Source of the DNA: Candidatus Rokuibacteriota bacterium
Lineage (GTDB): Bacteria > Methylomirabilota > Methylomirabilia > Rokubacteriales > CSP1-6
Assembly: GCA_003221635.1 (NCBI GenBank)
Contig: QHSR01000246.1
Location: 1-44,567, forward strand
Reading direction: 5' to 3'
DNA length: 44,567 nt
Positions 3,809 to 24,134 of this stretch are shown piece by piece. Below the pieces are notes generated by a model. It had not been told where the DNA came from, did not search any database, and saw only the letters and a program-made list of their open reading frames with translations. Position numbers and translations under genes: made by a program. Every line of letters starts with the position of its first letter. The first letter of the stretch is position 1.

Positions 3809-4312
3809 TCAGCCTCGCGACTTGACGCAGGCCACCCGGCCACCGGTCATCCGGACGAGGTCGGCAGGCGTCAGCTTGAAGACCGTGTTCGGGTGACCGG
3901 CCGCCGCCCAGATCTCCGGCCACTGCATCAGATCGTCGTCGATCAAGATCGTCAGCGGCTCGGCGTGCGCGACCGGAGCAACGCCCCCGATCGCGAAACC
4001 CGTCCGGGCCCGCACGAAGTCGGCGTCGGCCCGCGCCACGGGCTCGGCGACGAGCCCGGCGACCCGGCGCTCGTCGACGCGGTTCGCGCCGCTCGTGATG
4101 ACCAGCACCGCGCACTGAGTGTGCTCGCCGCGGAACACGAGCGACTTGGCGATCTGGTCGACGCGGCAGCCGACGGCGCGCGCGGCTTCGGCCGAGGTCC
4201 GCGCCGGCCGCTCGAGGGCGACCACGGTGTGGCGGCCTCCCGCGGCGGCGAGCGCCTCCTGGACCCGCCGGACACCCGGGCCCAGCGCGGGGTTCGTCGC
4301 CTCGTCCGCCAT
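3809..4312 (-). CDS. YbaK/EbsC-family aminoacyl-tRNA deacylase
   Basis: A 167-residue single-domain protein of the YbaK/ProX editing family, whose members hydrolyse mischarged tRNA such as Cys-tRNA(Pro). The conserved core is visible: the A-K-S-L-V-F strand with its lysine, V-I-T-S-G-A-N-R, G-F-A-I-G-G-V-A-P and the closing F-K-L-T-P-x-D-L. Its ATG (4312) overlaps the stop of the Sec-peroxiredoxin gene as ATGA, so translation is likely coupled. The exact tRNA specificity cannot be read from the sequence. Confidence 0.85.
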   Translation of the reverse strand: MADEATNPALGPGVRRVQEALAAAGGRHTVVALERPARTSAEAARAVGCRVDQIAKSLVFRGEHTQCAVLVITSGANRVDERRVAGLVAEPVARADADFVRARTGFAIGGVAPVAHAEPLTILIDDDLMQWPEIWAAAGHPNTVFKLTPADLVRMTGGRVACVKSRG

Positions 4313-5046
4313 CAGAGGCCGCGCACGGCTCGCGCCACGTCTCCGGGGTCGGGCCTCACCTGAATGTTGTCGGCCAGCGAGAGCCAGCGGACGATCCCCT
4401 GACGGTCGATGACGACGGTCGTCGGTCTCGGGACGTCTTGCCCCTTGTTACCGCCGCGGGCGTGGACGAGACCGTAGCGTCGCGTCACCGTCAGGTCGCG
4501 GTCGGTGAGGAAGCGGTAGCGCGCGCGCAGCCGCTCGGCGAGCGCCTGGCTTCGCTCGTTCGAATCGGGACTGATCGCCAGGATCTGCACGCCGGCGTCG
4601 CCAAGCTCCGTGAGGACAGCTCCAAGGCCTTGGAGCTCCGAGACGCAGAACGGTCACCAGTAGCCGCGGTAGAAGACCAGGACGACCGGCGTTTGGTTAC
4701 GAAAAGACGTGAGCGCGACCGGGACGCCCGCCGCGTCCGGCAGCGTGAAGTCGGGCGCCGGTTCGCCGACGCGAAGGGTGGTCGCCGCCGTCGGGATCCT
4801 CGCGAGGACGAAGTTGAAGTAACCGCCGACAAGGAGTAAGGCCGCCGAGATCACGAGGGCCGCGAGGTTGGGCCAGCGGGCGGCGCGCCACGACGCGATG
4901 GCCGCGATCGCCGTCGCCAGGGCGAAGGCCGCGAGGTAGAGCGCCGGATGGTTGCGGACGACGGGCGCGCGCAGCAAGGACACGTAGGCGGCGACCGCGC
5001 CCAGCGAGAGGGCCACGCTCAGCATCGCCGGCCAGTACCTGGTCAT
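4312..5046 (-). CDS. Membrane-anchored selenocysteine peroxiredoxin (AhpC/TSA family), UGA-decoded
   Basis: Reading the TGA at 4656-4654 as selenocysteine gives one 244-residue protein with Sec131. Three hydrophobic helices (about residues 7-25, 34-54 and 62-82) precede a thioredoxin-fold domain that starts V-G-E-P-A-P-D-F-T-L-P. The active site reads FYRGYW-U-PFC, where homologues have FYRGYWCPFC, and homology continues after the TGA through ILAISPDSNERS, FLTDRDLTVTRRYGL and the RPTTVVIDRQGIVRW strand. The role is reduction of peroxides or a thiol partner at the membrane. The ATG at 5046 overlaps the PIG-L stop (ATGA), and its own stop overlaps the YbaK start. A hairpin follows the UGA (separate entry). 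Without Sec decoding it would be two useless fragments, yet the conserved overlaps argue for one functional gene. Confidence 0.88.
4618..4637 (-). promoter_or_regulatory. SECIS-like stem-loop after the UGA of the Sec-peroxiredoxin
   Basis: Starting 17 nt after the UGA, the mRNA forms a perfect 8-bp stem (AGCUCCAA with UUGGAGCU) closed by a GGCC loop. The loop guanines lie at +25 and +26. Bacterial SECIS elements, which recruit SelB, have a stem-loop with G in the apical loop in the 16-37 nt range, so distance and shape fit. Confidence 0.7.
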
Positions 5047-5741
5047 CGCGCGAGGACGACCCGGTCGAACGTCTCCGCGTACGCGTAGCCCTTCGGCTTG
5101 CCGAGCTCGGCCGCGCGCTCGCGGATGCGCTTCTCGACCCCCGGGAAATCCGCGAACTGACTCGCGTGGCAGGCCAGCGCCTTGATCTTCAGATCCATGA
5201 CCTCGGTGATGTCGACCACGAGGTGCGGGTTCTCCCACTGCATGAGATGGATTTCGAGCACCTTGTGCGGCTCGTTGTCGGGCATGAGCTCCGGGAACGC
5301 CAGGTGGTCACGCGCGAGCGGGTACACGCAGTCGAGGGCGACCCCTGCAACAATGCGGTGGTCACGATGGGAGCCGCCGAGGTTGTACGTGCGGTGCGGG
5401 TTCATCGAGATGACGAGGTCCGGGCGCCACCGGCGGATCTCTCGGGTGACGTCACGTCGAAGCTCGCGCGTGTCCTCGACCTCGCAGTCGGGATAGCCCA
5501 GGAACTCGACGCGCGCGACGCCGAGCGTGCGGGCGGCGTTTCGCTGCTCCTCCTCGCGGATCACGGCCAGGCGCGCGGACGTCATCGCCCGATCGCCCGA
5601 GCCCTTGTTACCGTTGGTCACGATCACGTACGTGACCTCGCAGCCCTCCTTGACCAACCTGGCGATGGTCCCGCCGGCTCCGAACTCGGAGTCGTCGGGA
5701 TGCGCCGTCACTACCATGACCCGCTCGATCTTCTCGGCCAA
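5043..5741 (-). CDS. PIG-L/LmbE-family deacetylase
   Basis: A 232-residue zinc-dependent N-acetyl deacetylase of the LmbE/BshB type. The zinc site is recognisable as AHPDDSEFGAGGT near the N-terminus, with the later SHRDHR histidine motif. Family members deacetylate GlcNAc-linked substrates, including precursors of low-molecular-weight thiols such as bacillithiol and mycothiol. That would suit its position upstream of a peroxiredoxin, but the substrate is an inference. The TTG at 5741 was chosen because AGGAG lies just upstream; an in-frame ATG sits eight codons further in, directly before V-V-T-A-H-P-D-D. It is the first gene of the five-gene minus-strand operon. Confidence 0.85.
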   Translation of the reverse strand: MAEKIERVMVVTAHPDDSEFGAGGTIARLVKEGCEVTYVIVTNGNKGSGDRAMTSARLAVIREEEQRNAARTLGVARVEFLGYPDCEVEDTRELRRDVTREIRRWRPDLVISMNPHRTYNLGGSHRDHRIVAGVALDCVYPLARDHLAFPELMPDNEPHKVLEIHLMQWENPHLVVDITEVMDLKIKALACHASQFADFPGVEKRIRERAAELGKPKGYAYAETFDRVVLAR

Positions 5742-5827
5742 CGACGTCTCCTTTGTAGCGGGGGCCGTGAGGCCGCATCGGGTCGGGGGTGGCCTGAGAA
5801 AGATGCGGCGCGGCTCCGCAGCGCCCG

Positions 5828-5966
5828 CTCAACCCCAAGATGCCTTAACCAACCCTGTGGCGCCTTGACTCAACCCTGTGGTGCCTTGACTCAACCCTGA
5901 GGTGCCTTGACTCAACCCTTTGGGGCCTTGACTCACCCTTAGAGGTCTTGACCCAGCCCTTTGATG
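5828..5966. repeat. 21-bp tandem repeat, about 6.5 copies
   Basis: The unit is GCCTTGACTCAACCCTGTGG plus one base, with a full-length or near-full-length copy starting at 5842, 5862, 5883, 5904, 5925 and 5946, preceded by a partial copy from 5828. The first full copy is one base short, and the last two are the most diverged. The 21-bp period would keep a reading frame, but no start or ribosome site supports translation. It fills most of the 280-bp gap between the divergent PIG-L and membrane-protein genes. Confidence 0.9.
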
Positions 5967-6009
5967 AACGCTTCCAGCATACCGATTCTGGGCGCGCCGG
6001 GCGAACAGC

Positions 6010-6015
6010 TATAAT
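6010..6015 (+). promoter_or_regulatory. Consensus -10 box TATAAT, leaderless start
   Basis: A perfect TATAAT ends 6 nt before the ATG at 6022, so transcription would begin at or next to the start codon. No good -35 hexamer is visible at the right spacing. Confidence 0.55.
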
Positions 6016-6021
6016 CACGTG

Positions 6022-7749
6022 ATGTCGATCGCCGCCCCGCGCCGGGTGGGGATCGCGGGCCTGCTCGGCCTCCTCACCGGCGCAATCATCCTGCTGCCCG
6101 TGCCCGGGAATCCAGGGGCTCTCAGGCTCGCCGGAGTCGGGTTGCTCTGGTGGTACGCGGCCCTCGCCGCGCCACTCGCCGCGATTCTGCTGGTGATCGT
6201 CGTTCGGCGTGCGTCCGCCGAGGTCGAATCCGGCCAAGCCGGTGCCGCGGCCATCGCGGTGTGGACGTCGCCGGTGGTCCTGGCCCTCGTCGCCGCCCGC
6301 GTTTTCACGGGCGCGCCGGAGGCGCCGACGATCACGCTCGCCGTCCTCGTGGCGCCGCTGGTCGCGTTGCTCGGTCCGGCGGCGAACGGAAAGCGTCGAC
6401 CGAACGTTGTCGCGGCGCTGGCGATCAGCGGTGGCGTCGGATTGGTCCTTTGGGCGAATTTCCTCCTGCTGGCCGACGTCGCTGGCTTGTTCGGCGTCCC
6501 GCGCTGGGTCACGAGCATCGTCGCGGCCGGAGTGACCCTTCTCGTTGTCTCGCTGCTACGCGGCGACAGCGTCGTCGGAGCCGGGCCACGCCTCGTTCCG
6601 GCCACCCTCGGGAGCATCGGCCGGTCGCTCCTCTATATGAGTGGGCTCGGGTTCGTGGCGCTGGTCGCGATCGTCGCTGTGGCTCTCGCCGTGTCTCCAT
6701 GGGACGCCTGGCGGGATATCGCGTCGCGGCCCGCGCTCACGTTCGACGCGCGCAATCCGTGGGTGACCGACGGCCGGACGCTCGCCGCGTTGACGACGCT
6801 CGAGTTCACGGAGGCTCATCGCGTCACGGCCCTGAACCTCGCCACCTACCGCGTCTTCGAGCCCGGCCGGTTCCGCGAATGGCAGCTTCGCGCCGGCGAA
6901 TCGCTGTCGCTCCGTGCGGGCGATCATCTGGTGATCGACGCCGGTGCACGATTGAGGTTCGAGGCCGGCAAGCGCGTCCCGGGAGCAGCTGCCTCGGGCG
7001 TCGCGTGGGCCGATCCGCCGGAGCGGAGCTCCCTCTCGACGGTCGCGCACGCGCTGGGCGCCGCGCTCACGCTGGTCGCTGGCGCGGTCGCCCTCCTCAG
7101 GCCCGCGCAGGCGCTCACCGTCAGGGCCGTCTCCACCGCGTCGGGGCTCGTGGTGGCGCTCGTGCTCGGGGCCCTTTGCCTCGGCGTTTACGGCGCCTAC
7201 TCGGCACCCGGGCTCTTCATCGGCTCGCCTGCGCTCGCGGCCGTCTTCGACGTCCCAGCGGCCGTCGTCCCTGGAGCCGCGGGCAGCGCCATCGTCGTGC
7301 TGAGTGCCCTCGTGCTTCTGCTCCTCTTCTCGGCGACCGTGCTCGCGCTGCGTGGTGTCCTCGGCAGAGCGTGGGGCGAAGTCAGGGCCGGTCGGTCGAG
7401 CGGGACCCAGCCGCGCCGCTCGGTGAGGGACCCCGCCATGGCATTCCTCGTCGTCGCCGCGTCCCTCGCCAGCCTGTGGCCGGGCGACGCGTCGCGAGCC
7501 CTCATGGCCGGACTCGGCCTGGCGGCGTCCGCCGCCGTCGCGCCCCGTCTCGCCGGCGACCGCCCGAGGGCCGGTCTGGCGGGCTCGCTGGTCGGCGTGA
7601 TCGCGTTCGCCGGTCTCGCCATCCTCGGCCGGCGCCTGCCGGCGTGGGCTGACGTCGTGTGGACATACCCCGCGCTCGCCGCCGCGCCCCTCGCGTGGGT
7701 GGTCGCGCGAGCCGAGACCGTGCGACGGGCGAGGCGAGCCTTACAATGA
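6022..7749 (+). CDS. Polytopic membrane protein of unknown function
   Basis: About 575 residues with roughly a dozen hydrophobic segments. A block of six to seven helices lies before about residue 240, then a soluble stretch (about 240-340, containing [11 protein letters not shown] and [12 protein letters not shown]), then further helices to the end. I do not recognise the family. The soluble insert could be an extracytoplasmic beta-rich domain. The start is GTG 6019 or ATG 6022; the ATG fits the TATAAT spacing. The last codons lie inside the first copy of a 52-bp tandem repeat, so the C-terminus ([12 protein letters not shown]) is repeat-derived. Confidence 0.7.
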
Positions 7750-7860
7750 CCGGAGTGCGCGAGCCGAGACCGTGCGACGGGCGAGGCGAGCCTTACAGTG
7801 ACCGGAGTGCGCGAGCCGAGACCGTGCGACGGACGAGGCGAGCCTTCCAGTGACCGGAGT
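7706..7860. repeat. 52-bp tandem repeat, three copies
   Basis: Copies start at 7706, 7758 and 7810, each opening CGCGAGCCGAGACCGTGCGA and ending near TGACCGGAGT. Copies one and two differ at one base and copy three at a few. Copy one contains the stop codon of the preceding gene. The ends resemble the 53-bp REP-like repeat elsewhere in the window (it starts GTGCGAGCCGC and ends CCGAGGCGAGC), but the central hairpin is absent. Confidence 0.9.
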
Positions 7861-7877
7861 CGCGCGAGCGTGGAATG

Positions 7878-7906
7878 TTGCCGCGGCCTCGCGACACTGA
7901 CACAAT
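7878..7906 (+). promoter_or_regulatory. Candidate uvrA promoter
   Basis: TTGCCG (7878-7883), a 17-bp spacer and CACAAT (7901-7906) make a housekeeping-type promoter. The -10 ends 8 nt before the uvrA ATG, predicting a very short or absent leader. No LexA-like box was recognised. Confidence 0.45.
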
Positions 7907-7914
7907 AGATCGCC

Positions 7915-10797
<2,883 letters not shown>

Positions 10798-10800
10798 CGC

Positions 10801-12175
10801 ATGCGGCGGACCAAGATCGTCTGCACGATCGGTCCCGCGAGCAGCAGCACCGCCGAGCTCGATCGCTTGGTCGGGGCCGGCCTGGACGTCGCGCGTCTCA
10901 ACTTCTCCCACGGCACGCACGACGAGCACGCGGAGGTGATCCGGCGGATCCGTGAGGGCGAGGCGCGCTGGGGCCGCCCGGTGGCCATCCTCCAGGATCT
11001 CCAGGGACCGAAGATCAGGCTGGGAACCTTCGGCCCGGGTGGGGGCGGGCGCGTCGATCTCGAAGCAGGTCGGACGTTCACCCTCTGTGCGCGGCCGGTC
11101 GTGGGCACCGTGGAACGGGCGTCGCTCACCCACCCCGAATATTTGAAAGGCGGTGTCGCCGGACGAAGTCCGCTGCCGCGTGGTCGTCGGCGGACGCATC
11201 AGCGATCACAAGGGGCTCTCGCTCCCGCGAGTCACGCTGCCGGTGTCCTGCCTGACGCCGAAGGACTGCGAGGACCTGCGCTTCGGCCTGCGCCAGGGGG
11301 TTGACTTCGTCGCGGTCTCGTTCGTCCGGTCAGCCGACGACATCGACGCGGTGCGGAGCGTCCTGCGCGCCGAGGCGGCGGGGGATCTGCCGATCGTCGC
11401 GAAGCTCGAGCGTCACGAGATCCTCGCCAATCTCCCGGGCATCCTGAACACGGTGGACGCGGTCATGGTCGCGCGCGGCGACCTCGGCGTCGACGTACCG
11501 ATCGAGGACGTGCCCCATATCCAGAAGGAGATCATCCGACAGGCGCGCGGCGCGAAGGTCCCGGTGATCGTCGCGACCCAGATGCTGGAGTCGATGGTCA
11601 CGCATATCCGGCCCACGCGCGCCGAAGTCTCGGACGTCTCGACGGCGATCTTCGACGGCGCCGACGCGATCATGCTGTCCGCCGAGACCGCCACCGGGCG
11701 GTATCCCGGGGAGGCCGTCTCCGTCATGGCGCGGATCGCCGAGCGCGCCGACGGCGCGGTGCTGGCCGTCGAACGGGAGCGGCGGCGGCGCCCGGGCGGG
11801 AGCTTCCCGGAGGCCATCTCCGATGCGGCGGCGACGGCGGCGCACGTGCTCGGCGCGCGCGCCATCGTGGCCTTCACCGAGTCGGGCTTCTCGGCCCGCC
11901 TCATCTCCCAGGCCCGCCCGGGCGTGCCGATCATCGCGCTGACGCCCTTCGTCGAGGTCCAGCGGCGGCTCGCGCTTTCGTGGGGTGTCATCTCCCGTCT
12001 GATCAGGAAGGTCGAGACGACCGACGAGATGATCGAGGAGGTCGAGGCGACGTTGCTGAACGACGGCTCGGTGCGTCCCAACGACGTGATCGTCATCATC
12101 TCCGGATCACCCATGTGGGTCCGGGGAACGACGAATCTGCTGAAGCTCCATCGGGTGGGCGAGCGCCGCGCGTGA
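10801..12175 (+). pseudogene. pyk: Pyruvate kinase with an internal deletion and frameshift
   Basis: The N-terminal part (10801 to about 11145) reads TKIVCTIGPASS, ARLNFSHG, LQDLQGPKIRLG and ends near V-E-R-A-S-L-T-H-P-E-Y. The rest (from about 11153 in a different frame) resumes at S-P-D-E-V-R-C-R-V-V-V-G-G and carries ISDHKGLSLP, VAKLERHE, MVARGDLGVD, ATQMLESM, SAETATGRYP and the C-terminal domain. About 20-25 residues of the B domain, normally containing the G-D-x-I-x-I-D-D-G strand, are missing at the junction and the reading frame changes. Either the gene is inactive or the assembly lost a non-multiple-of-three segment here. The intact protein would catalyse PEP + ADP to pyruvate + ATP. 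Confidence 0.85.
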
Positions 12176-15100
12176 GGGGCGCGCCCAGCCGCCGGAGCCG
12201 GGAGCTCGAGGCGCTGCACGCGGTCGCGGTCGCGACCGGCAGCGGGGACGGTCTGGCTCTCACCGCCGAGCGGACGCTCGAGGTCGTGTGCGGCATCGCC
12301 GGGATCACCGTCGGAGGCGTGTTCCGATTCGACCGCGCGACCCAGACGCTCGTCCTCACCGCTCATCGTGGTCTTCTGCCCGATGACATCGAGCGCTTGC
12401 GCGTCCGGTCGCTCGACCAGAGCCACGTCGGTGAAGTGATCCGCAGCGGTCGGCCGGTCGTCACGGATCTCACCGCCTCGCGCGTGCTGACGCCCGACGT
12501 CGTCGAGCGCGTGAGAGTCGGCGGCTACCGAACCCAGCTCGCCCTGCCGATTCCGGTCGACGGCCAGACGTGGGGCGTCATGGCGCTCATCACGCGGGAG
12601 GCCCGGACCTTCGATGCTGACGAGCTGACGCTGCTCCAGGTGGTCGCGCACCAGGTGGGACAGGCGGTGGCCCGCGCCGCGCTCCTGGCCGAGGGCCGGG
12701 AGAAGAGCCGCCGCCTCGAGACGCTCGCGCGTCTGGCGCAGACGCTGACCGCCACGCTGTCGCTCGACGAGGTGTTTCGCCGCGTGGTCGATGCGGCGGT
12801 CGAGCTGTTCGGGTCGAGCACCGCGCAGCTCTGGCTGGTGGACGACGACGACCGCCATGTCTCGCGGCGGGCGGCCGCGGGGATCCAGCCGTCGGAGGCC
12901 GTCGAGCGCTTGCAAGTCGGGGAGGGGCTCGTCGGGACGGTCGTGGCGACCCGCGAGCCGCTGACGGCGGTCGACCCGCTTCGAGACCCCCGGGCGCGTA
13001 ACGTCGAGCGGGTCCGCGCCGACGACGTGGTCAGCGTCGGCATCGTGCCACTGCCGCTGGGCGACCGGGTGCTGGGCGCCCTGGCCATCGGCGTCCGCGC
13101 CCGGCACGAATACACCTCCGACGAGCTGCAGCTCCTCGGCTCGCTCGCCTCGCACGCGGCGAACGCGATCAACAACGCCCAGCTCTATCGCGAAGCGACC
13201 CGGCAGGCGCAGCGCCTGAGCGCGCTGACCGACCTGGTGCGTCTGGTGTCCGAGACCCTCGACTTCGACCCCGCCGCACAACGCGTCGCCGACAGCGTGT
13301 GCTCGCTGCTTGGTGCCCGCGCCTCGTGCCTGTACCGGGTCGACCCGGCCTCGGACACCCTCGTCGCGGTCGCGACCTCCAGGGATCCCGACCAGCTCTT
13401 CCAGTGGCATACGGTGCTGCCGAAGGGCATCGGGATCGCCGGGCTCGCCGTGAGCCAGCGCCGGTCCGTCGCCTCGCCCGACGTGCTGGTCGATGCGCGC
13501 ATCAGCTTCACGGATGAGATGCGCGCCCGTATCGCGCTGGAAGCGGACCGCTCCCTGCTCGCCGTTCCGCTGCTGGTGCAGGGACGGATGTTCGGCGCGC
13601 TCGCCGTCAGTGATCGCGTCGGACGCGTCTTCGATGACTCCGAGATTCGCCTGGCGCAGGCGTTCGCCGACCAGGCCGCGCTGGCGCTGGAGAACGCGCG
13701 GCTCTACACGGAGGCGAGGCGCCGACGGCTCGAAGCGGAGGAGCTGGCCCGGCTCGCGCGGACGCTGACCGAGAGCCTCGATCCGCGAGCGGTCGGTGAC
13801 CAGATCGCCGAGAGCGTGCTCGCGCTCTTCCTGGTGCGGTCGTCCGTGCTGCGATTGCTGCAGCCCGACGGATCGCTGGTGACCGTGGCCAGCGGGGGGC
13901 GCCGTCGCAGCGCGTCGCCGCTCGGCGCCGTGCTGCCCGCGGGCGTCGGGGCGTCCGGGCGAGCGGCCGTCGAGGGTCGAGCGGTGACGTCGCCCGACGC
14001 CTTCAACGACCCGTCGATCGTCCTCAGCGAAGAGGTCGCGAAGAGGATGCGCCGCGCCGGCGACGGCGCGCTGCTCGCCGTGCCGCTCCGGGCGAAGGGC
14101 CGGATCATCGGCACCCTCTCGCTGGGGGATGCCTCGGGCCGGGTCTTTTCCGAGGCGGAGGTCGGGCTGCTCCAGGCCTTCGGCGACCAGGCGGCGCTCG
14201 CGCTGGAGAACGCCCGTCTCTTCTCGCTCGAGACGGCCCGCCGGGGGCAAATCGCAGCCCTCGCTCAAGCCGAGCGCGAGTTCGCCCCCGAGCTCGACCC
14301 CGACCGCCTCCTCACCCTGGTCGTCGAGCGCGCCACGCGGCTCTTCGATGCCCACGGCGTCATCTACCTCGCGGACGGGGGTCGCGGGCTGGCGCCGCGC
14401 GCCTGGACGCCGGGCGGCGGATTCGGGGACGTCACGATCGCCTTCGGGCACGGCGTGGTCGGGGTCTGCGCCGAGCAGCGCCGGGGCCTCGTCGTCAACG
14501 ACTACGCGGCGTCGCACTTCGCCGTGCGCAGGTGGGTCGACATGGGAGTGCGCCGCGCGATGGCGTTCCCGCTGTGCGTGCAGGACCGGGTGCTCGGCGT
14601 CATCGCGATGAATCGAACCGGCCCGGACGCCGCGCCGTTCCTCGACGAAGACCTGGCCGTCCTGGAGAGCTTCGCCGCCCGCGCCGCCATCGCGCTCGAG
14701 AACGCGCGCCTGTACGAGCAGAACCGGCGGCAGGTCGAGGAGCTGTCGGTGCTGCTGGAGCTGTCGCACGCGGTCACCGGCCAGCTCGATCGAGCGGCAC
14801 TGCTCGACGCGATTCGCGCGCAGGTCGGCCGCATCCTCAACGCCGCCAACATGGCGATCGTGCTCCGCGACGAGGTGCGGGGGGATCTCGAAGTCGTGCT
14901 CCGCACCGTCGACGGCGCGCTCGACATGCGGCCGCCGCTTCGGTACCCGGATCGGTCGGTGGGACTCATGTCCGTCGTGCTGGAGACGGGCGAGGCGATT
15001 CGCAGCGACGACTACTTCGCCGAGTGCGCGCGACGCGGCGTCGAGCCGGTACCGACCTTCGCGGGGGCGCGGCACTGGCTCGGAGTCCCGATGAGGGCGG

Positions 15101-16392
15101 CGGACACGGTCATCGGCGTGCTGACCCTGCGCAGCCCCGAGCGGCCATTCGCCGACGCCGATCAGCGCCTGCTGACCAACATCGCCCATCTCGCCGCGCT
15201 GGCGTTGCGCAACGCGCGGCTCTTCGAGGAGCGGACGCGCGCCTACGGCGAGCTGGCCGGGGCGCAGGATCAGCTTGTGCGCACGGAGAAACTCCGCGCA
15301 CTCGGCGAGATGGCCTCGGGCGTGGCCCACGACTTCAACAACCTGCTCGCGTCGATCCTGGGCCGGGCCCAGCTCACGCTCCAGCGCCTGAAAGATCCGC
15401 AGCTGCGCACGTGGATACAGGTCATCGAGCGTGCTGCCCTGGACGGCGCGCAGACCGTCCGCCGGCTGCAGGAGTTCACGCGGACCCGCCGGGATCAGCA
15501 GCGCTTCTTCGCAGTCGACCTCAACGAGGTCGTGAGCGGCGCGCTCGAGATCACCCAATCGCGCTGGCGGGAGGAGACGCGCAGCCGGGGGGTGGCGGTC
15601 GAGGTGCAGACCTCGTTCGCGGTCCTGCCCTCGGTGGCGGGCGATCCCGCCGAGCTGCGGGAGGCGCTGACCAATCTCATTTTGAACGCGGTGGACGCCA
15701 TGCCGACGGGCGGCACCCTAACGCTGACCACGGCCGTCGAGAACAACGAGGTCGTGGTGACGGTGGCCGACTCCGGCGTCGGCATTTCCGACGCCATCCG
15801 GGGCAAGATCTTCGACCCGTTCTTCACCACGAAGGGCCCGCAGGGCACCGGGCTCGGGCTCTCGATGACGTATGGGATCCTCTCCCGGCACGGCGCCCGC
15901 ATCACGGTCGACAGCCACGAGGGGCGCGGCACCGCGTTCCGCTTGACGTTCGCGCCGGGTGAGGCGTCCGACGTGGAGGCGCCGGGCTCGACGGCCGAGC
16001 CGGCCGCACCCGGCGCGTCGCTCCGGTGTCTGGTCGTCGATGACGAAGAGCAAGTGGGCACGGTGCTCGGCGACGTCCTCGTGGCCGGAGGCCATCGGGT
16101 CGTGGTGCTCACCGACGGCGGTGAGGCGATCGCCCGCTTCCGCGCGGAACCCTTCGATCTGGTGTTCACCGACCTGGCGATGCCGCGGGTCTCGGGCTGG
16201 CAGGTGGCCCAGTCGGTCAAGGAGATCGCGCCCGCGGTGCCGGTGGTCCTTGTCACCGGCTTCGGCGTCGAGCTGTCGGCGGAGGAGCGCCACGCCCACG
16301 GCGTGGACCTGGTGGTGGTGAAGCCGTTGAAGATCAACGACGTCCTGGACGTCGTTGCGCGCGTGACCCGCCGGCGCGCGAAGCGGACCTGA
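12172..16392 (+). CDS. Hybrid sensor histidine kinase with six GAF domains and a C-terminal receiver
   Basis: A 1406-residue soluble kinase starting at GTG 12172, which overlaps the pyk stop (GTGA). Six consecutive GAF domains span roughly residues 15-172, 190-342, 345-516, 523-690, 696-850 and 856-1020; several end with the family's A-L-A-L-E-N-A-R-L helix. The dimerisation motif LGEMASGVAHDFNNLL places the phosphorylated histidine at about H1053. The ATPase part has the N box L-N-A-V-D-A-M, DSGVGI, FDPFFTTK and GTGLGLS (about 1160-1260). The receiver domain (about 1282-1400) has the D-D-E acidic pair, phosphoacceptor D1334 in FTDLAMPR and the K in V-V-K-P-L. No membrane segment is present, so it senses a cytoplasmic signal. 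No cognate regulator is adjacent. Confidence 0.92.
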   Translation: MRGAPSRRSRELEALHAVAVATGSGDGLALTAERTLEVVCGIAGITVGGVFRFDRATQTLVLTAHRGLLPDDIERLRVRSLDQSHVGEVIRSGRPVVTDLTASRVLTPDVVERVRVGGYRTQLALPIPVDGQTWGVMALITREARTFDADELTLLQVVAHQVGQAVARAALLAEGREKSRRLETLARLAQTLTATLSLDEVFRRVVDAAVELFGSSTAQLWLVDDDDRHVSRRAAAGIQPSEAVERLQVGEGLVGTVVATREPLTAVDPLRDPRARNVERVRADDVVSVGIVPLPLGDRVLGALAIGVRARHEYTSDELQLLGSLASHAANAINNAQLYREATRQAQRLSALTDLVRLVSETLDFDPAAQRVADSVCSLLGARASCLYRVDPASDTLVAVATSRDPDQLFQWHTVLPKGIGIAGLAVSQRRSVASPDVLVDARISFTDEMRARIALEADRSLLAVPLLVQGRMFGALAVSDRVGRVFDDSEIRLAQAFADQAALALENARLYTEARRRRLEAEELARLARTLTESLDPRAVGDQIAESVLALFLVRSSVLRLLQPDGSLVTVASGGRRRSASPLGAVLPAGVGASGRAAVEGRAVTSPDAFNDPSIVLSEEVAKRMRRAGDGALLAVPLRAKGRIIGTLSLGDASGRVFSEAEVGLLQAFGDQAALALENARLFSLETARRGQIAALAQAEREFAPELDPDRLLTLVVERATRLFDAHGVIYLADGGRGLAPRAWTPGGGFGDVTIAFGHGVVGVCAEQRRGLVVNDYAASHFAVRRWVDMGVRRAMAFPLCVQDRVLGVIAMNRTGPDAAPFLDEDLAVLESFAARAAIALENARLYEQNRRQVEELSVLLELSHAVTGQLDRAALLDAIRAQVGRILNAANMAIVLRDEVRGDLEVVLRTVDGALDMRPPLRYPDRSVGLMSVVLETGEAIRSDDYFAECARRGVEPVPTFAGARHWLGVPMRAADTVIGVLTLRSPERPFADADQRLLTNIAHLAALALRNARLFEERTRAYGELAGAQDQLVRTEKLRALGEMASGVAHDFNNLLASILGRAQLTLQRLKDPQLRTWIQVIERAALDGAQTVRRLQEFTRTRRDQQRFFAVDLNEVVSGALEITQSRWREETRSRGVAVEVQTSFAVLPSVAGDPAELREALTNLILNAVDAMPTGGTLTLTTAVENNEVVVTVADSGVGISDAIRGKIFDPFFTTKGPQGTGLGLSMTYGILSRHGARITVDSHEGRGTAFRLTFAPGEASDVEAPGSTAEPAAPGASLRCLVVDDEEQVGTVLGDVLVAGGHRVVVLTDGGEAIARFRAEPFDLVFTDLAMPRVSGWQVAQSVKEIAPAVPVVLVTGFGVELSAEERHAHGVDLVVVKPLKINDVLDVVARVTRRRAKRT

Positions 16393-17580: not shown

Positions 17581-17610
17581 CGCGATGGCGATCTTCTTCA
17601 GGAGGCTCAC

Positions 17611-18390
17611 ATGACCAATAAGGATGCCGCTCGGGTTTCCGGAACAACCGTCAGGCTCTACTACCGGCCGGGCTGATCGTCCTGCGCCAAGACGAAGGAG
17701 CTCCTCTCGTCTTGGGGGGTCGAGTTCGACCCGGTCGACGTGCAGGCGCGTCCGGAGGGCTACGCCGAGCTCAAGCGGCTGGGGATCGGACGGGTACCCG
17801 CGGTGACGGTCGGCGATCGCGCCGCGCACGGGTGGAATCCGCCGGCGTACGCCGAGCTGCTCGGCATTCCGTATTCAGCGGCGGTCAAGCTTGCGCCGAC
17901 CGAGTTGGCCAAGCGGCTCGACATCATCCTCGATACGACGCAGGGACTCATCCACGCCGTGCCGGACCAGCACATGGACTGGCGGCCGCCCGAGCGGAAT
18001 CGGACCGTGCGCAACCTGGGCTATCACGTCTTCCGGCTGTCGCTGGCATTCGTGGACGGTATGGACCTCGGCGAGTTCCCTGAGTCCTGGTTGCTGGACC
18101 AGGCGCCGGCGGACCTCCGTGACGGCCCGGCCATCGCGCGCTACGGCGCGCTCGTGCGTGGCCGTATCACCGGGTGGTTCGAGGGGGCGTCGCCCCGCGA
18201 ATTCGAGCGCGTGATCAAGGTGTACTACGGCCCGCAGTCCGGCCACGACCTGCTCGAGCGCACGACGTGGCACGCCGCGCAGCACTTGCGGCAAATCTAC
18301 GCGCTGGCCGAGCGCCTCGCGATCACACCGCCGGCACCGATGCCGGCATACGCCTTCGAGGGATTGCCGCTGCCAGACGCTCTGTGGTGA
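17611..18390 (+). CDS. Selenocysteine glutaredoxin-like domain fused to a DinB-type domain, UGA-decoded
   Basis: The ATG at 17611 follows AGGAGG. Decoding the TGA at 17674-17676 as Sec22 gives a 259-residue protein. The first about 85 residues are glutaredoxin-like: V-R-L-Y-Y-R-P-G-U-S-S-C-A-K-T-K-E-L-L, then a cis-proline segment G-R-V-P-A-V-T-V-G. Homologues would have C-x-x-C here. From about residue 100 a DinB/YfiT four-helix domain follows, with histidines in N-L-G-Y-H and W-H-A-A-Q-H-L-R-Q-I as likely metal ligands. DinB proteins often act with low-molecular-weight thiols, so the fusion may couple thiol transfer or reduction to a DinB activity; this is an inference. A 9-bp hairpin follows the UGA. 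The next in-frame start (17740) lies after the glutaredoxin active site, so translation from there would lose it. Confidence 0.87.
17687..17715 (+). promoter_or_regulatory. SECIS-like stem-loop after the UGA of Sec-glutaredoxin-DinB
   Basis: A perfect 9-bp stem, CCAAGACGA with UCGUCUUGG, encloses an 11-nt loop AGGAGCUCCUC and starts 11 nt after the UGA. Loop guanines fall at +21 and +22, close to the position of the SelB-contacting bases in the E. coli fdhF element. This is the most convincing of the four elements. Confidence 0.75.
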
Positions 18391-19388: not shown

Positions 19389-19443
19389 GGGCCGTATTGT
19401 ATCGGAGCGCTCGGCCCCTTGTATCGCCTGCCGTGAGGCCGGC

Positions 19444-20094: not shown

Positions 20095-20098
20095 GCCT

Positions 20099-20105
20099 TA
20101 TAATA
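20099..20105. promoter_or_regulatory. Overlapping divergent -10 boxes
   Basis: The plus strand reads TATAAT (20099-20104) upstream of the aminotransferase, and the minus strand reads TATTAT (20105-20100) five bases before the GTG of the SUMF1-like gene. One near-palindrome could serve both genes. Confidence 0.45.
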
Positions 20106-20120
20106 GGGACCTTCCGAGAA

Positions 20121-20140
20121 GTCGCCTATAGTCGCCTATA
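20121..20140 (+). repeat. Direct repeat GTCGCCTATA x2
   Basis: Two perfect 10-bp copies lie back to back directly before the AAGGAG ribosome site (20141-20146) of the aminotransferase. It may be an operator or simple slippage. Confidence 0.6.
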
Positions 20141-20152
20141 AAGGAGAGCCCC

Positions 20153-21325
20153 ATGAACGTCGCCCCGCGGATGGCCCGGCTCGGAACCGAGTCCGCGTTC
20201 GAGGTGCTGGCCCGCGCGCGGCAGCTCGAGCGCGCCGGCCGCGAAATCATTCACCTGGAAATCGGCGAGCCGGACTTCGACACGCCAGTGCACATCAAGG
20301 AGGCCGCGAAGCAGGCGCTCGACGCGGGGGCGACGCACTACGGCCCATCCGCCGGGCTGCCGGAGCTCCGCGAGGCGATCGCCAAGCATGTCGCCGAGAC
20401 GCGCGGCGTGCCCGTCGCGCCCGAGGAAGTGGTGGTCACGCCGGGCGCCAAGCCGATCATGTTCTTCACGATCATGGCCCTGATCGGCGATGGCGACGAG
20501 GTGATCTACCCGAATCCCGGCTTTCCGATCTACGAGTCCGTCATCAATTTCGTCGGCGGCGTCCCGGTGCCGATTCCGCTCCGCGAGGAAAGCGGCTTCG
20601 GATTCGATCTCGAGCTGTTCGAGCGCCGTGTCTCGTCGAAGACGAAGCTGATCGTCATCAACTCGCCCGAGAATCCCACCGGCGGCGTGCTCGACCGTGA
20701 TCAGGTCGAGCGCATCGCGGACGTCGCGCGGCGTCGGGGGATCGCCGTGCTTTCCGACGAGATCTACCGGCAGTTCCTCTACGAGGGCGAGTTCGCCTCG
20801 ATCATGGGGCTGCCGGGCATGCGAGAGCAGACGATCCTGCTCGACGGCTTCTCCAAGTCGTACGCGATGACCGGCTGGCGCCTCGGCTACGGCGTGATGC
20901 CGCCGGCCCTCGCCGAGCACGTGGCGCGGCTCATGGTGAATTCCAACTCCTGCACGGCCTCGTTCGTGCAGCTCGCCGGCATCGCGGCGCTTCAGGGCGA
21001 CCAGACGCCGGTCGCCCGCATGGTGGCCGAGTTCAAGCGACGGCGCGACCTGCTCGTGGACGGCCTCAACCGCCTGCCCGGCGTCCGGTGCGCGCGGCCG
21101 CGCGGTGCCTTTTACGTGTTTCCGAACATCACGGGGACCGGCCGGCCGTCAGCCGAGGTGGCCGAGCGGCTTCTGACCGAGGCCGGCGTGGCCGCGCTCT
21201 CGGGCGCGGCGTTCGGCGCTCACGGTGAGGGCTATCTGCGGTTCTCGTACGCGAACTCGGAGAGCAATTTGCGCCTGGCCCTCGAGCGCATGCGCCCCCT
21301 GTTCGAGAGCTTCGCGAGGAAATGA
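20153..21325 (+). CDS. Class I/II pyridoxal-phosphate aminotransferase
   Basis: A 390-residue fold-type I aminotransferase of the AspC/AatA group. It shows L-E-I-G-E-P-D-F-D-T-P, the T-H-Y-G-P-S-A-G-L-P-E-L-R motif, N-S-P-E-N-P-T-G, D-E-I-Y and the PLP lysine at about K235 in G-F-S-K-S-Y-A-M-T-G-W-R, plus the C-terminal carboxylate-binding R in L-R-F-S-Y-A. It moves amino groups between an amino acid and 2-oxoglutarate or a similar keto acid; the amino acid is not certain. AAGGAG precedes the ATG by the normal distance. Confidence 0.92.
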   Translation: MNVAPRMARLGTESAFEVLARARQLERAGREIIHLEIGEPDFDTPVHIKEAAKQALDAGATHYGPSAGLPELREAIAKHVAETRGVPVAPEEVVVTPGAKPIMFFTIMALIGDGDEVIYPNPGFPIYESVINFVGGVPVPIPLREESGFGFDLELFERRVSSKTKLIVINSPENPTGGVLDRDQVERIADVARRRGIAVLSDEIYRQFLYEGEFASIMGLPGMREQTILLDGFSKSYAMTGWRLGYGVMPPALAEHVARLMVNSNSCTASFVQLAGIAALQGDQTPVARMVAEFKRRRDLLVDGLNRLPGVRCARPRGAFYVFPNITGTGRPSAEVAERLLTEAGVAALSGAAFGAHGEGYLRFSYANSESNLRLALERMRPLFESFARK

Positions 21326-21347
21326 CGGCGGTCGAGCCCGGGTCGGC

Positions 21348-22820
21348 GTGAGCCGGAGCACCGTCGCCGATGTCGTCGTCGACGGCCTGAAGCGAGCCGG
21401 CACGCCGCGGCTCTTCGGCGTGGCAGGTCTTGATGCGAAACTCCCGCTCCTCGAGGCGGCGCGCGCGGGCGAACTTCCGCTGACGCTCGCGTCCGGGGAG
21501 ACCGCCGCGTGCATCATGGCCGCGGTCACCGGCGATCTCGTCGAGGCGCCGGGCGCCGTGGTCGTGGGATCCGGCCGCGGCGTCACGGCGGCGATCGCCG
21601 GCGTGGCCCAGGCGCGGGTGGACCGCGCGCCGATGATCGTCCTGACCGACGACCACCCCGCGGTCTTCGCTGCCTCCAAGGCGAGCCTCCGTGTGCAGCG
21701 AGAGTCAGCGGCGCACTGGATCGCCCACGCGACGCGGCTGGCCGCCACGGAGCCACGTGGCCCTGTCCATCTGGAGGTCCCTGACGAGATCGCGCGGCAG
21801 TCGGCGCTGCCCCTCGCGACGTCGTGCCGACCGGATCGCTTGCCGCCCCCTGATCCCGGCGCGCTCGACGCGGCAGCCCGACGGCTCGCCAGCGCATCCC
21901 GTCCGCTGCTGATCGCCGGCCTCCACTGCCGGTCGACCGGCGTCCCGCAGTGGCTCCGCGCGCTGGTGGAGGCGCTGCCCGCGCCCGTGCTGGTCACGCG
22001 CCGGGCCAAGGGTGCGCTGCCTGACCCGCACCCGCTGGTGCTCGGGGTTCTCGGTAACGAGACCGTCGACGAGCGCCTGCTGAAACGCGCCGATCTCGTC
22101 GTCGGCCTCGGGCTCGACGCGCTCGAGCCCGTGCCCGCCCCGTGGTGGTCGACGGTCCCCGTCCTCGCCTTGGGGCCGCCGCAGGCGCTGGGCGATCGCA
22201 TCCCGGCTGTCGAGGTGGTCGGCGAGGTCGCCGTCGTCCTCGAGGAGCTCGCGCCGCGCCTTCATGACCGGCAGCGAGCCGACTGGGACATCGCCGAGCT
22301 CGACCGCCTCAAGCGCGAGCTCTCGGCGGGGCCTGCCGGGGACGATCAGGCGCTCGCCCGGAGAGGGATCGTCCGCATCGCGCGCGAGGCGACTGCGGCC
22401 GGCACGATCGCCGCGGTCGATGCCGGCCCTCACATGATCGACGTCGCCGTGGGCTGGCACGCTGTCGCCCCGCGCGAGTTCCTGGTGACTCACGGGCTTG
22501 CCACGGCGGGTTTCGCGCTGCCGGCGGCCATCGCGGCGCACCTCGTCCATCCCGATCGCCGCGTCGTGTGTTTCACCGGGGTCGCAGAGCTGACGGCCGC
22601 CGCGCCCGAGCTCGAGACCGCGACACGGCTCGGCGCGCCGATCGTTCTGGTCGTGTTCGGCGCCACCGCGTCGGACTCGACCGCCGTGACGCGGCTGGCG
22701 GAGCGCTTTCGGACGACGTCGTTCGCCGCTGATAGCGAGGCGCGGTTCGCCCAGGCGCTGGGTCGGGCGCTCTCGGGCGCGGGACCGTCGCTGATTTCAT
22801 CTACTACTGGGGCTCGCTGA
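21348..22820 (+). CDS. Thiamine-pyrophosphate-enzyme-like protein with degenerate cofactor motif
   Basis: About 490 residues with the three-domain layout of acetolactate synthase-type enzymes. The catalytic glutamate region is present as A-S-G-E-T-A-A-C-I-M-A near residue 50. In the C-terminal domain, the G-D-G...N-N motif that binds Mg-TPP is missing: the aligned region reads C-F-T-G-V-A-E-L-T-A-A-A-P-E-L-E-T-A and then V-V-F-G-A-T-A-S-D. The protein therefore may not bind TPP normally. The C-terminus stops early at G-P-S-L-I followed by unrelated residues. The start is GTG 21348, 22 nt after the aminotransferase stop. Confidence 0.72.
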   Translation: MSRSTVADVVVDGLKRAGTPRLFGVAGLDAKLPLLEAARAGELPLTLASGETAACIMAAVTGDLVEAPGAVVVGSGRGVTAAIAGVAQARVDRAPMIVLTDDHPAVFAASKASLRVQRESAAHWIAHATRLAATEPRGPVHLEVPDEIARQSALPLATSCRPDRLPPPDPGALDAAARRLASASRPLLIAGLHCRSTGVPQWLRALVEALPAPVLVTRRAKGALPDPHPLVLGVLGNETVDERLLKRADLVVGLGLDALEPVPAPWWSTVPVLALGPPQALGDRIPAVEVVGEVAVVLEELAPRLHDRQRADWDIAELDRLKRELSAGPAGDDQALARRGIVRIAREATAAGTIAAVDAGPHMIDVAVGWHAVAPREFLVTHGLATAGFALPAAIAAHLVHPDRRVVCFTGVAELTAAAPELETATRLGAPIVLVVFGATASDSTAVTRLAERFRTTSFAADSEARFAQALGRALSGAGPSLISSTTGAR

Positions 22821-22894
22821 TGGCGGGCGCGGTGGTAGCGAGCCTCCCGATCGTCGTCTACGTCTGGTTCGATCGCCGGGCCGGCGAGTCGTGA
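22793..22894 (+). pseudogene. Remnant of a sugar ABC transporter permease C-terminus
   Basis: Overlapping the end of the TPP-like gene in another frame is D-F-I-Y-Y-W-G-S-L-M-A-G-A-V-V-A-S-L-P-I-V-V-Y, then a short tail to TGA. This resembles the last helix of MalG-type permeases (W-G-x-L-M-A-G). Read instead from ATG 22820 it would be a 24-residue single-helix peptide. I favour a recombination relic. Confidence 0.45.
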
Positions 22895-22910
22895 AGGAGG
22901 TCGGGGCAGG

Positions 22911-22916
22911 TATAAT
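22911..22916 (+). promoter_or_regulatory. Consensus -10 box TATAAT, leaderless start of the Sec-oxidoreductase
   Basis: TATAAT ends 6 nt before the ATG at 22923, so the transcript would start at the ATG. The GAAGGAGG further upstream is about 20 nt from the ATG, too far to serve as its ribosome site. Confidence 0.55.
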
Positions 22917-22922
22917 GACGCC

Positions 22923-23573
22923 ATGCCGATCCTGACCGCGCGCGACCAGGCCGCTGTTCGCACGGAGTTCGAGCGCATCGCTGGGCCCGTGAAGCTCGTC
23001 GTCTTCTCGCAGGAGCTCGCCGCCGCCGAGCTCTGCCAGCAGAACGAGCAGCTCGTGCGCGAGGTCGCCGAGCTTTCCGACCAGATCACGGTGGAGGTGC
23101 TGAACCTCGCCATCGACCGCGAGCGCGCCGAGGCGTACGGCGTGGACCAGGTGCCGGCCATCGTCGTCGAAGGCAGCCGTGACTACGGCATCCGCTTCTA
23201 CGGCGTCCCCCTGGGCTACGAGTTCAGCAACCTCATCGACTCGATCATCGTGGCGTCCACCGGCGAGCCGGCGCTGGCCGAGGACACCCTGGCCTCGCTG
23301 CGCGCGCTCGCCGCCGACGTCGACATCAAGGTTTTCTCGACACCCACCTGACCCCACTGTCCCCGGGCCGTGCGCCTGGCGCAGCACATGTCGGTGGCGT
23401 CGGACCGCGTCCGCTCGACCGTCATCGAGGCGACGGAGTTTCCCGAGCTGTCGCGGGCCTATCAGGTGATGGGCGTGCCGAAGGTCGTCATCAACGACCG
23501 CGTGCAGTTCGAGGGCGCCGTCCCCGAGCGGGACTTCCTCGGCGCCGTCCTCCAGGCGGTCGAGCCTGCCTGA
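22923..23573 (+). CDS. Selenocysteine thioredoxin-fold protein disulfide oxidoreductase (two-domain), UGA-decoded
   Basis: With the TGA at 23349-23351 read as Sec143 the gene encodes 216 residues built of two thioredoxin folds, as in PDO/glutaredoxin-like proteins. The N-terminal domain (K-L-V-V-F-S-Q...) lacks a CxxC motif but keeps the cis-proline segment G-V-D-Q-V-P-A-I-V-V. The C-terminal domain has I-K-V-F-S-T-P-T-U-P-H-C-P-R-A-V-R, where relatives read T-P-T-C-P-H-C, and then its cis-proline segment Y-Q-V-M-G-V-P-K-V-V-I. It should reduce disulfides or a partner peroxiredoxin in the cytoplasm. The next gene, 27 nt downstream, is a Sec-peroxiredoxin, which suggests a functional pair. The frame continues exactly across the TGA with no insertion or deletion. 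Confidence 0.9.
23370..23387 (+). promoter_or_regulatory. SECIS-like stem-loop after the UGA of the Sec-oxidoreductase
   Basis: GUGC pairs with GCAC, then GC with GC across one bulged A, closing a CUGGC loop. The loop guanines sit at +27 and +28 from the UGA, within the usual range. It is the weakest of the four elements because of the bulge and small loop. Confidence 0.5.
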
Positions 23574-23600
23574 GGCAGGCCGTCACGACGTGGTCGACCG

Positions 23601-24134
23601 TTGAAGGCGCTCGTCCTCGTCCTGCTCACCCTCCTGGCGCCGCCCGCGCTCGCGGCGGACCGCGACAAGCCGGTCGCGGTCAACGAGACGGCGCCCGACA
23701 TCGTCCTGGGTGACCAGCATGGCCGGCCGTTCCGACTGTCCGACGCTCTCGCGCAGCGCGATTTCGTCGTCGTGGCCTTCTTCGTCAAGGCCTTCACCGG
23801 CGGCTGAGAGCGCGAATTCTCCCGGTTCCGGGACGACCAGCCGAAGTTCGCCGCGCTCAACGCCGAAATCGTCGGCGTCTCGGTCGATCCCCCGGAACGC
23901 AACCTCGCCTGGACGAAGCACCTCGGCCTGCCGTTTCGCCTGCTGAGCGACGTCGAGACGCCGGGCCGGGTGAGTCGGCTCTATGGCGTCTGGGATGACA
24001 CGTGGAATCTCTCGAAGCGCGTGACATTCATCGTCGACCGGTCCGGACGCGTCCGCTACGTGGAGATCGGGAGCCTCGCGATCGACACGAGCCGGACGCT
24101 CGACGCGCTGCAGCGGCTTGCCCAGGCCAAGTAG
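23601..24134 (+). CDS. Exported 1-selenocysteine peroxiredoxin, UGA-decoded
   Basis: The TTG at 23601 opens a clear signal peptide (MKALVLVLLTLLAPPALAA), so the protein is exported. The mature part has E-T-A-P-D-I-V-L-G-D and V-V-V-A-F-F-V-K-A-F-T-G-G-U-E-R-E-F, where peroxiredoxins have F-T-P-x-C. The TGA at 23805-23807 thus encodes Sec69 at the peroxidatic position. Homology continues in frame through I-V-G-V-S-V-D-P-P-E, F-R-L-L-S-D, L-Y-G-V-W and V-T-F-I-V-D-R-S-G-R-V-R to TAG. Total 177 residues. There is no cysteine anywhere, so it is a 1-Sec enzyme that needs an external reductant. The adjacent Sec-oxidoreductase is the obvious candidate, but it has no signal peptide, so electrons would have to cross the membrane or the partner is another protein. 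Confidence 0.88.
23820..23833 (+). promoter_or_regulatory. SECIS-like stem-loop after the UGA of the 1-Sec peroxiredoxin
   Basis: UCCCG pairs with CGGGA around a GUUC loop, with G at +18 and U at +19 after the UGA. An outer perfect pairing is also possible between GAGCGCG directly after the UGA and CGCGCUC about 40 nt later. The G-U start of the loop matches the classic element. Confidence 0.6.

What the first reader, a model, noticed from the sequence alone, without database searches (positions are those of the whole stretch)
4312..24134. Four clustered selenoprotein genes, all thiol-redox, each hidden by an in-frame UGA
At 4656-4654 (minus), 17674, 23349 and 23805 a TGA replaces exactly the catalytic cysteine of a peroxiredoxin, a glutaredoxin, a two-domain thioredoxin-fold protein and a second peroxiredoxin. 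In all four, homology continues in the same frame after the TGA, and a stem-loop with G in its loop follows at +18 to +28. Standard annotation would split them into six or more fragments or call them pseudogenes. Together they suggest that this lineage has moved much of its thiol peroxide chemistry to selenium.
Basis: partly seen in the sequence, partly recalled or inferred. Interest (0 to 1): 0.93.

Follow-up and report, generated by a model that had tools for sequence, protein, structure and literature searches.

The report
Four selenium-containing redox genes in Rokubacteria
An uncultured bacterium encodes four redox proteins whose genes contain a stop codon that is evidently read as selenocysteine; three belong to known selenoprotein types, and the fourth joins a selenium glutaredoxin to a metal-binding domain, a combination we did not find described.

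Summary
TGA lies in frame at all four sites and coding sequence continues beyond it. The window is one contig of an 88.8% complete MAG; named relatives are Candidatus Rokubacteria. Among 57 genomes of the family the TGA is kept in nearly every orthologue found, and the Grx protein has Cys-codon relatives in Proteobacteria. selA, selB and a UGA-bearing selD are in the MAG. tRNA-Sec is missing, but in four same-genus genomes it lies 737-789 bp beyond the point where this MAG's selAB contig ends. The stem-loop after the UGA is well supported in three families, weakly in the fourth. The wider claim holds in part: 10 of 19 listed AhpC/TSA matches and three of four glutaredoxin-domain matches of the MAG have U in the active-site motif. 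Corrections: the 4656 protein is a UxxC Prx-like oxidoreductase, not a typical peroxiredoxin; only the last two genes are adjacent. Three of the four are known selenoprotein types, and a 2026 review reports a 63-selenoprotein MAG in Methylomirabilota. New as far as my searches go: the Grx-DinB fusion, a UxxC glutaredoxin with a DinB/YfiT domain and invariant His triad. There is no protein-level evidence.

The parts
4312..5046 (-). Sec-containing Prx-like (AhpC/TSA) thiol:disulfide oxidoreductase with hydrophobic N-terminal segments (by eye); motif WUPFC
4654..4656 (-). in-frame UGA (Sec131)
4619..4636 (-). 7-bp stem with GGNC loop (SECIS candidate), all 7 pairs formed in 24 of 24 distinct relatives
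17600..17605 (+). AGGAGG ribosome-binding site of the Grx-DinB gene
   Evidence: read by eye
17611..18390 (+). Sec-glutaredoxin (UxxC) fused to a DinB/YfiT-type four-helix domain with His triad (H134, H216, H220 in P0002 numbering)
17674..17676 (+). in-frame UGA (Sec)
17687..17715 (+). 8-bp stem-loop after the UGA (SECIS candidate)
22923..23573 (+). Sec-containing protein disulfide oxidoreductase (two Trx-fold domains, homologue of the AhpF N-terminal domain)
23349..23351 (+). in-frame UGA (Sec143)
23363..23379 (+). 6-bp stem, 5-nt loop after the UGA (SECIS candidate)
23601..24134 (+). Sec-peroxiredoxin (TxxU motif) with signal-peptide-like N-terminus; TTG start proposed by eye
23805..23807 (+). 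in-frame UGA (Sec)
23818..23836 (+). short stem-loop with GGTTCC loop after the UGA; weak support

Best explanation
These are four genuine bacterial selenoprotein genes in a Candidatus Rokubacteria genome. SelB with Sec-tRNA(Sec) decodes an in-frame UGA with the help of a stem-loop about 13-41 nt downstream, placing selenocysteine in the active-site motif of (1) a probably membrane-anchored Prx-like UxxC oxidoreductase, (2) a UxxC glutaredoxin fused to a DinB/YfiT metal-binding domain, (3) a protein disulfide oxidoreductase and (4) a TxxU peroxiredoxin. They are part of a larger set of thiol-redox selenoproteins in the genome. Shown by sequence comparison: UGA conservation, Cys/Sec exchange (three of four), the Sec machinery, stem conservation. 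Inferred: actual Sec insertion, the enzyme activities, and that the Sec-PDO hands electrons to a peroxiredoxin as the AhpF N-terminal domain does to AhpC.
For: UGA conserved across the family. Cys codon at the same place in 11 of 77 Grx-DinB rows, all from Proteobacteria; there the 8-bp stem is absent (18% of cells paired, own-codon recodings 25%), whereas 36 Sec forms of 45% identity or more have 92% against 61% and mean energy z -2.31. selA 499 bits and selB 374 bits adjacent on contig C2, SelD with its own UGA. tRNA-Sec in 46 of 57 family genomes and 6 of the 8 other same-genus genomes; in the four of these examined it lies 737-789 bp past this MAG's contig end. Stem pairing above synonymous recodings: 1.00 against 0.68 (4656 gene, 24 sequences) and 0.97 against 0.69 (PDO, 34), with rare codons CTT, GGA and CAA nearly fixed in the stem of the 4656 gene. 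U aligns with the active-site Cys of solved PDOs and of M. tuberculosis Rv2238c. UGA is still a normal stop: it ends 15 of 22 ORFs that I listed.
Against: No tRNA-Sec over the cut-off was found in this MAG itself. Folding energy of U+1..U+14 does not beat synonymous recodings for the 4656 gene or the PDO (mean z -0.32 and -0.35). The fourth hairpin is weak: 0 of 13 sequences exceed 95% of their own recodings. The stem structures were derived from the same sequences, which flatters them, and two of the stems hardly vary, so covariation says little. Three distant Sec forms of Grx-DinB (L176, L178, L184) do not show this stem (54% paired against 41%, mean z +0.46). One PDO (G022) has Arg at the site; the fourth gene of G052 appears frameshifted just upstream of the site. 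No Cys-codon orthologue of the 4656 protein was found. The PDO and the fourth protein may be in different compartments, since only the latter begins like a signal peptide. No protein-level data.
Confidence: 0.95

Rival explanations
1. UGA is reassigned to Trp or Gly genome-wide, or is read through by a near-cognate tRNA, so that the proteins hold an ordinary amino acid.
For: The frames are open across UGA.
Against: UGA ends 15 of 22 listed ORFs, including three of these four genes. TGAs with coding-like usage on both sides were found in the window only at three claimed sites and two gene junctions. U falls in the redox motif in all cases and exchanges with Cys. Sec machinery is present.
Confidence: 0.02
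2. The genes are pseudogenes, or the stops are sequencing or assembly errors.
For: The MAG is fragmented and carries an apparent frameshift in pyk. The fourth gene of G052 appears to be in two frames.
Against: The same codon is kept in dozens of separately assembled genomes with high protein identity on both sides.
Confidence: 0.01
3. The selenoproteins are real, but the 'cluster' is chance linkage in a selenoprotein-rich genome, not a functional unit.
For: Unrelated genes lie between them (pyk, a GAF kinase and others), and both strands are used. If the genome held 63 such genes, four within 19.8 kb would arise somewhere with probability 0.10; with 40 it is 0.015, with 15 it is 0.0004.
Against: PDO and the fourth gene are within 1.5 kb in 13 of 13 genomes that have both, and Grx-DinB and PDO lie within 40 kb in 17 of 44 (contig breaks make this a lower bound).
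Confidence: 0.6

Closest known systems
Sec-containing 'homolog of AhpF N-terminal domain', TIGR02187 (PMC13188914, Table 1)
   Same: The PDO passes TIGR02187 (257 bits, cut-off 185) with U in UxxC, as listed in the review.
   Different: Nothing essential; a new lineage record.
Sec peroxiredoxin, TxxU (PMC13188914, Table 1)
   Same: The 23805 protein has a T-G-G-U motif; U aligns with the Cys of M. tuberculosis Rv2238c (the name AhpE is recalled).
   Different: Signal-peptide-like N-terminus; below the cut-off of NCBIfam PrxU (44.5 against 270 bits).
Prx-like thiol:disulfide oxidoreductase, UxxC (PMC13188914, Table 1)
   Same: The 4656 protein has WUPFC in an AhpC-TSA domain.
   Different: Has hydrophobic N-terminal segments (by eye).
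Sec glutaredoxin, UxxC (PMC13188914, Table 1)
   Same: The N-terminal domain of the 17611 gene is a UxxC glutaredoxin.
   Different: Fused to a DinB/YfiT domain; it stays below the cut-offs of the NCBIfam UXX-star and HUGP/GUXX-star models that it matches.
DinB/YfiT (S-transferase-like) thiol transferases such as BstA (PMC5815605, passages)
   Same: Fold match to 1rxq (YfiT) and others; three invariant His, two with H-x3-H spacing, as H67, H160 and H164 of BstA.
   Different: 13-20% identity to DinB-type structures; attached to a Sec-glutaredoxin. BshC was found in 0 of 9 same-genus genomes, so bacillithiol made by the BshC route is not supported as partner.

Membership tests
bacterial selenoprotein | in-frame UGA at a position held by Cys in homologues | tested here: met
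   Grx-DinB: TGA in 65, Cys codon in 11, site not covered in 1, of 77 rows; PDO and 23805 Prx by solved Cys enzymes. Not shown for the 4656 protein, whose U is the first residue of UxxC.
bacterial selenoprotein | SelA, SelB, SelD and tRNA-Sec in the organism | tested here: inconclusive
   selA, selB and selD present; tRNA-Sec not found in the MAG, but present in 6 of 8 other same-genus genomes and placed beyond a contig end by the four examined.
bacterial selenoprotein | SECIS hairpin directly after UGA | tested here: met
   Met for three families, weak for the fourth; the energy test failed for two of the three. bSECISearch was not available; SelB binding not testable.
bacterial selenoprotein | selenium in the protein | not testable with these tools
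   needs mass spectrometry or 75Se
PDO_seleno_TRX TIGR02187 (23349 protein) | curated score cut-off | tested here: met
   257 against 185 bits
peroxiredoxin (4656 protein) | U at the peroxidatic Cys position | tested here: not met
   U131 aligns with Ser in one and Thr in the other of 2 solved matches; Cys134 aligns with their Cys
peroxiredoxin (23805 protein) | TxxC/U motif with U at the peroxidatic Cys | tested here: met
   (two alignments shown)
glutaredoxin (17674 protein) | Pfam PF00462 over cut-off with UxxC/CxxC | tested here: met
   44.4 against 22.9 bits
UXX-star selenoproteins (17674 protein) | NCBIfam cut-off | tested here: not met
   Uxx_star 32.4 against 66 bits; the other UXX-star models also below cut-off
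DinB/STL superfamily (17674 protein, C-terminal part) | four-helix DinB fold and His triad | tested here: met
   DinB_2 34.1 against 24.8 bits; H134, H216, H220 in 53 of 53; Foldseek to 3dka, 1rxq, 6iz2
DinB/STL thiol transferase | metal-dependent thiol transfer activity | not testable with these tools
   needs assay

The most novel reading that the evidence does not exclude
The Grx-DinB protein is a new class of selenium-dependent, metal-dependent thiol transferase: the DinB domain activates a low-molecular-weight thiol on its His-bound metal, and the fused Sec-glutaredoxin reduces or exchanges the resulting mixed disulfide. The Sec form is found in Rokubacteria and in records labelled Acidobacteria, Blastocatellia, Terriglobia, SAR324, Alphaproteobacteria and Proteobacteria, with Cys forms in other Proteobacteria. 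Since BshC was not found in the genus, the thiol may not be bacillithiol.
Probability: 0.3. Interest if true: 0.68.

Novelty: new variant of a known kind. Interest (0 to 1): 0.52.

Why it matters
Selenoprotein genes are easily annotated as broken fragments, so the redox biology of lineages rich in them is misread. Here one window leads to at least 15 UGA-bearing redox and selenium genes in a single MAG: ten AhpC/TSA, three glutaredoxin, PDO and SelD. It also gives a natural Sec/Cys pair in a fused enzyme with a metal site, in which the value of selenium can be tested directly.

Tried and rejected
A scan for further conserved UGAs in the window by tblastn against relatives was too noisy in this 70% GC sequence, since wrong frames also look conserved; it was replaced by a codon-usage test, which would miss UGAs close to a start. 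The energy test did not separate two of the families; pairs on the consensus stem were counted instead. The automatic consensus for the Grx gene split its stem (6 pairs, 96% paired against 69%, only 3 of 36 sequences above 95% of their recodings), so the 8-bp stem was counted in columns I set (93% of cells paired, all 8 pairs in 22 of 35 distinct sequences). In one search the Cys forms were recoded with the window's GC-rich codon usage, which biases their z (+1.6); one search repeats this with each gene's own usage. Rfam found no known RNA family in the window at its cut-offs. A bacillithiol partner was tested through BshC and not supported. Considered and rejected: a reassigned code, and pseudogenes.
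Full report
The window is the whole of contig C255 (44,567 bp, 69.8% GC) of a 5.17 Mb, 335-contig MAG, 88.8% complete. Its closest named relatives, 84-91% identical over the Grx-DinB protein, are MAGs called Candidatus Rokuibacteriota; that this group belongs to Methylomirabilota is recalled (one related record, L159, bears that label).

Observation. At each of the four stated positions a TGA interrupts a frame that continues with the same domain. In an independent test with codon usage trained on four long genes of the window, 390 TGAs had enough open frame around them; five had coding-like usage on both sides. Three are the claimed sites 4656, 23349 and 23805; two are junctions where a gene ends and the next begins in the same frame (10795, 23571). 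The site at 17674 does not pass because its N-terminus is only 21 codons long; there an AGGAGG box and an ATG at 17611 mark the start.

Conservation in 57 genomes of the family, G000 included; counts are of rows with a TGA inside the match. Grx-DinB: 49 genomes with a match, 55 rows; all 49 rows that cover the site carry TGA (G041, cut by a contig end, also has a TAG); six rows match only downstream of the site and are left out (four without a stop, one with a TGA, one with a TAA). PDO: 48 of 49 rows; the exception, G022, encodes Arg. The 4656 protein: 34 of 34 rows, 24 orthologue-like (53% identity or more) and 10 paralogues at 35-42%, in some of which the TGA sits at another column. The 23805 protein: 14 of 16 rows; the other two are paralogues with TGC. 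Apart from the G019 Cys paralogue it has no match in the other eight same-genus genomes. Codons read directly in fetched loci (rows include duplicates of one gene): Grx-DinB TGA 65, TGC/TGT 11, site not covered 1, of 77; PDO TGA 51 of 51; 4656 protein TGA 27, other codons in other AhpC/TSA subtypes 11, not covered 1, of 39; 23805 protein TGA 24, TGC 2, GCT 2, of 28, the GCT rows being the out-of-frame start of the copy in G052, which looks frameshifted just before the site. The Cys forms of Grx-DinB are in one alphaproteobacterial and ten beta- or gammaproteobacterial records (classes partly recalled); Sec forms outside Rokubacteria are in records labelled Acidobacteria, Blastocatellia, Terriglobia, SAR324, Alphaproteobacteria, Rhodospirillaceae and Proteobacteria.

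Machinery. selA and selB lie side by side on contig C2. SelD on C122 has a UGA in the motif CAGU. No tRNA-Sec over the Rfam cut-off was found in this MAG, but 46 of 57 family genomes have it, 6 of the 8 other same-genus genomes among them. In the four of these that I examined the stretch aligned to the first bases of C2 is followed 737-789 bp later by a tRNA-Sec (ARAGORN, anticodon TCA). Its absence is therefore most simply a contig end.

Hairpins. After the UGA of the 4656 gene a 7-bp stem with a GGNC loop is fully paired in 24 of 24 distinct relatives, against 68% of pairs in synonymous recodings; CTT (3% usage), GGA (9%) and CAA (10%) are nearly fixed there. In the PDO 97% of cells pair against 69% (25 of 34 sequences above 95% of their recodings). 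For the 23805 gene 95% pair against 76%, but 0 of 13 sequences exceed 95% of their recodings. Slid controls reach at most 0.55, 0.63 and 0.67 for these three. The structures were derived from the same sequences, which flatters them. The 8-bp stem of the Grx gene is 93% paired in 35 distinct sequences, with one pair changed on both sides (A-T to G-C in 4) and that same pair open in 12. With each gene's own codon usage, 36 Sec forms of 45% identity or more have 92% of stem cells paired against 61% and mean energy z -2.31; 11 Cys forms have 18% against 25% and z +0.13; three distant Sec forms have 54% against 41% and z +0.46, so their element, if any, differs. Energy of U+1..U+14 against recodings: 23805 gene mean z -1.16, 4656 gene -0.32, PDO -0.35. 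Codon identity after the UGA exceeds the rest of the gene for Grx (0.221 against 0.053) and PDO (0.239 against 0.052), less so for the other two (0.135 against 0.089; 0.069 against 0.034).

How far has the lineage moved to selenium? The MAG has 21 AhpC/TSA matches at E of 1e-8 or better, of which 19 are listed; 10 of the 19 have U in the active-site motif. By motif, read by eye: five peroxidase-like with U (four TxxU, one AxxU) against three TxxC; five UxxC against six CxxC-like. Of four glutaredoxin matches over the Pfam cut-off three have UxxC; the fourth has Cys and looks, by eye, like an ArsC-type protein. With PDO and SelD this makes at least 15 UGA genes.

The Grx-DinB protein. AlphaFold2 on 41 homologues gives mean pLDDT 91.5: a glutaredoxin-like part followed by four long helices. 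Foldseek finds DinB/YfiT structures (3dka, 1rxq, 6iz2 and others) and NrdH/Grx. H134, H216 and H220 are invariant in 53 of 53 homologues. Passages of PMC5815605 give H67, H160 and H164 as the only residues conserved in all eight B. subtilis bacillithiol transferases of this superfamily, whose activity is metal-dependent; the H-x3-H spacing is the same. BshC was found in 0 of 9 same-genus genomes (control 3 of 14), so the thiol partner is unknown.

Arrangement. Unrelated genes lie between the four. PDO and Prx are within 1.5 kb in 13 of 13 genomes with both; Grx-DinB and PDO lie within 40 kb in 17 of 44, the 4656 protein and Grx-DinB in 9 of 23, lower bounds because of contig breaks. Four within 19.8 kb would be rare by chance with 15 such genes (P 0.0004), less so with 40 (0.015) or 63 (0.10). 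The pairing of a PDO, homologous to the AhpF N-terminal domain, with a peroxiredoxin suggests an AhpF/AhpC-like relay, but the Prx begins like an exported protein and the PDO does not; this step is inference.

Known work. The 2026 review PMC13188914 (passages, and section 7 parts 1 and 2 of 3, read) lists Prx TxxU, Grx UxxC, Prx-like UxxC and TIGR02187 UxxC among 119 prokaryotic selenoprotein families or subfamilies, and reports that a Methylomirabilota MAG was predicted to hold 63 selenoprotein genes (citing Deng et al. 2026, not held). The word DinB does not occur in the main text of that review, of PMC9312934 or of PMC12013277 (passages only), and a search for DinB with selenoprotein gave two papers that look unrelated (search listing). 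Haft and Tolstoy 2025 is not held. Searches for selenoprotein with Rokubacteria, selenoprotein with Methylomirabilota and selenocysteine with Rokubacteri gave 1, 2 and 2 papers, that review among them and none dedicated to the group by title (search listings). Whether Grx-DinB is among Deng's candidates could not be checked. That the peroxidatic Cys of peroxiredoxins corresponds to the second Cys of CxxC is recalled and agrees.

Noticed in passing
window 10801-12175 (+): Pyruvate kinase is split over two frames (10801-11304 and 11153-12175): an apparent frameshift, natural or an assembly error.
   Followed up: no
window 5043-5741 (-): A PIG-L deacetylase overlaps the start of the 4656 gene; best NCBIfam model is BshB1, below cut-off (105 against 182.5 bits), yet BshC was not found in the genus.
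   Followed up: partly
window 11980-16392 (+): 1470-aa histidine kinase with about six GAF domains, HATPase and response regulator domains.
   Followed up: no
L026 (G000 contig C122): SelD of this MAG carries a UGA in CAGU, so the selenium donor enzyme is probably itself a selenoprotein.
   Followed up: yes
L193 (G022:C122): PDO with Arg instead of Sec, TPTRPHC: a real loss or a one-base error.
   Followed up: partly
L096 / L139 (G052:C203): The copy of the fourth gene seems frameshifted a few codons before the UGA.
   Followed up: no
L176, L178, L184: Distant Sec forms of Grx-DinB lack the 8-bp stem of the Rokubacteria genes; their SECIS, if any, is elsewhere.
   Followed up: partly
window about 5850-5945, 7600-7900, 24500-26700: Short repeated segments between genes, seen by eye as repeated readings.
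   Followed up: no
L179, L180, L181, L186: Records labelled Bordetella parapertussis carry the Cys form of Grx-DinB; the MAG labels look doubtful.
   Followed up: no
L224, L225 (G000 C100, C310): Two further UxxC glutaredoxin genes with in-frame UGA.
   Followed up: partly
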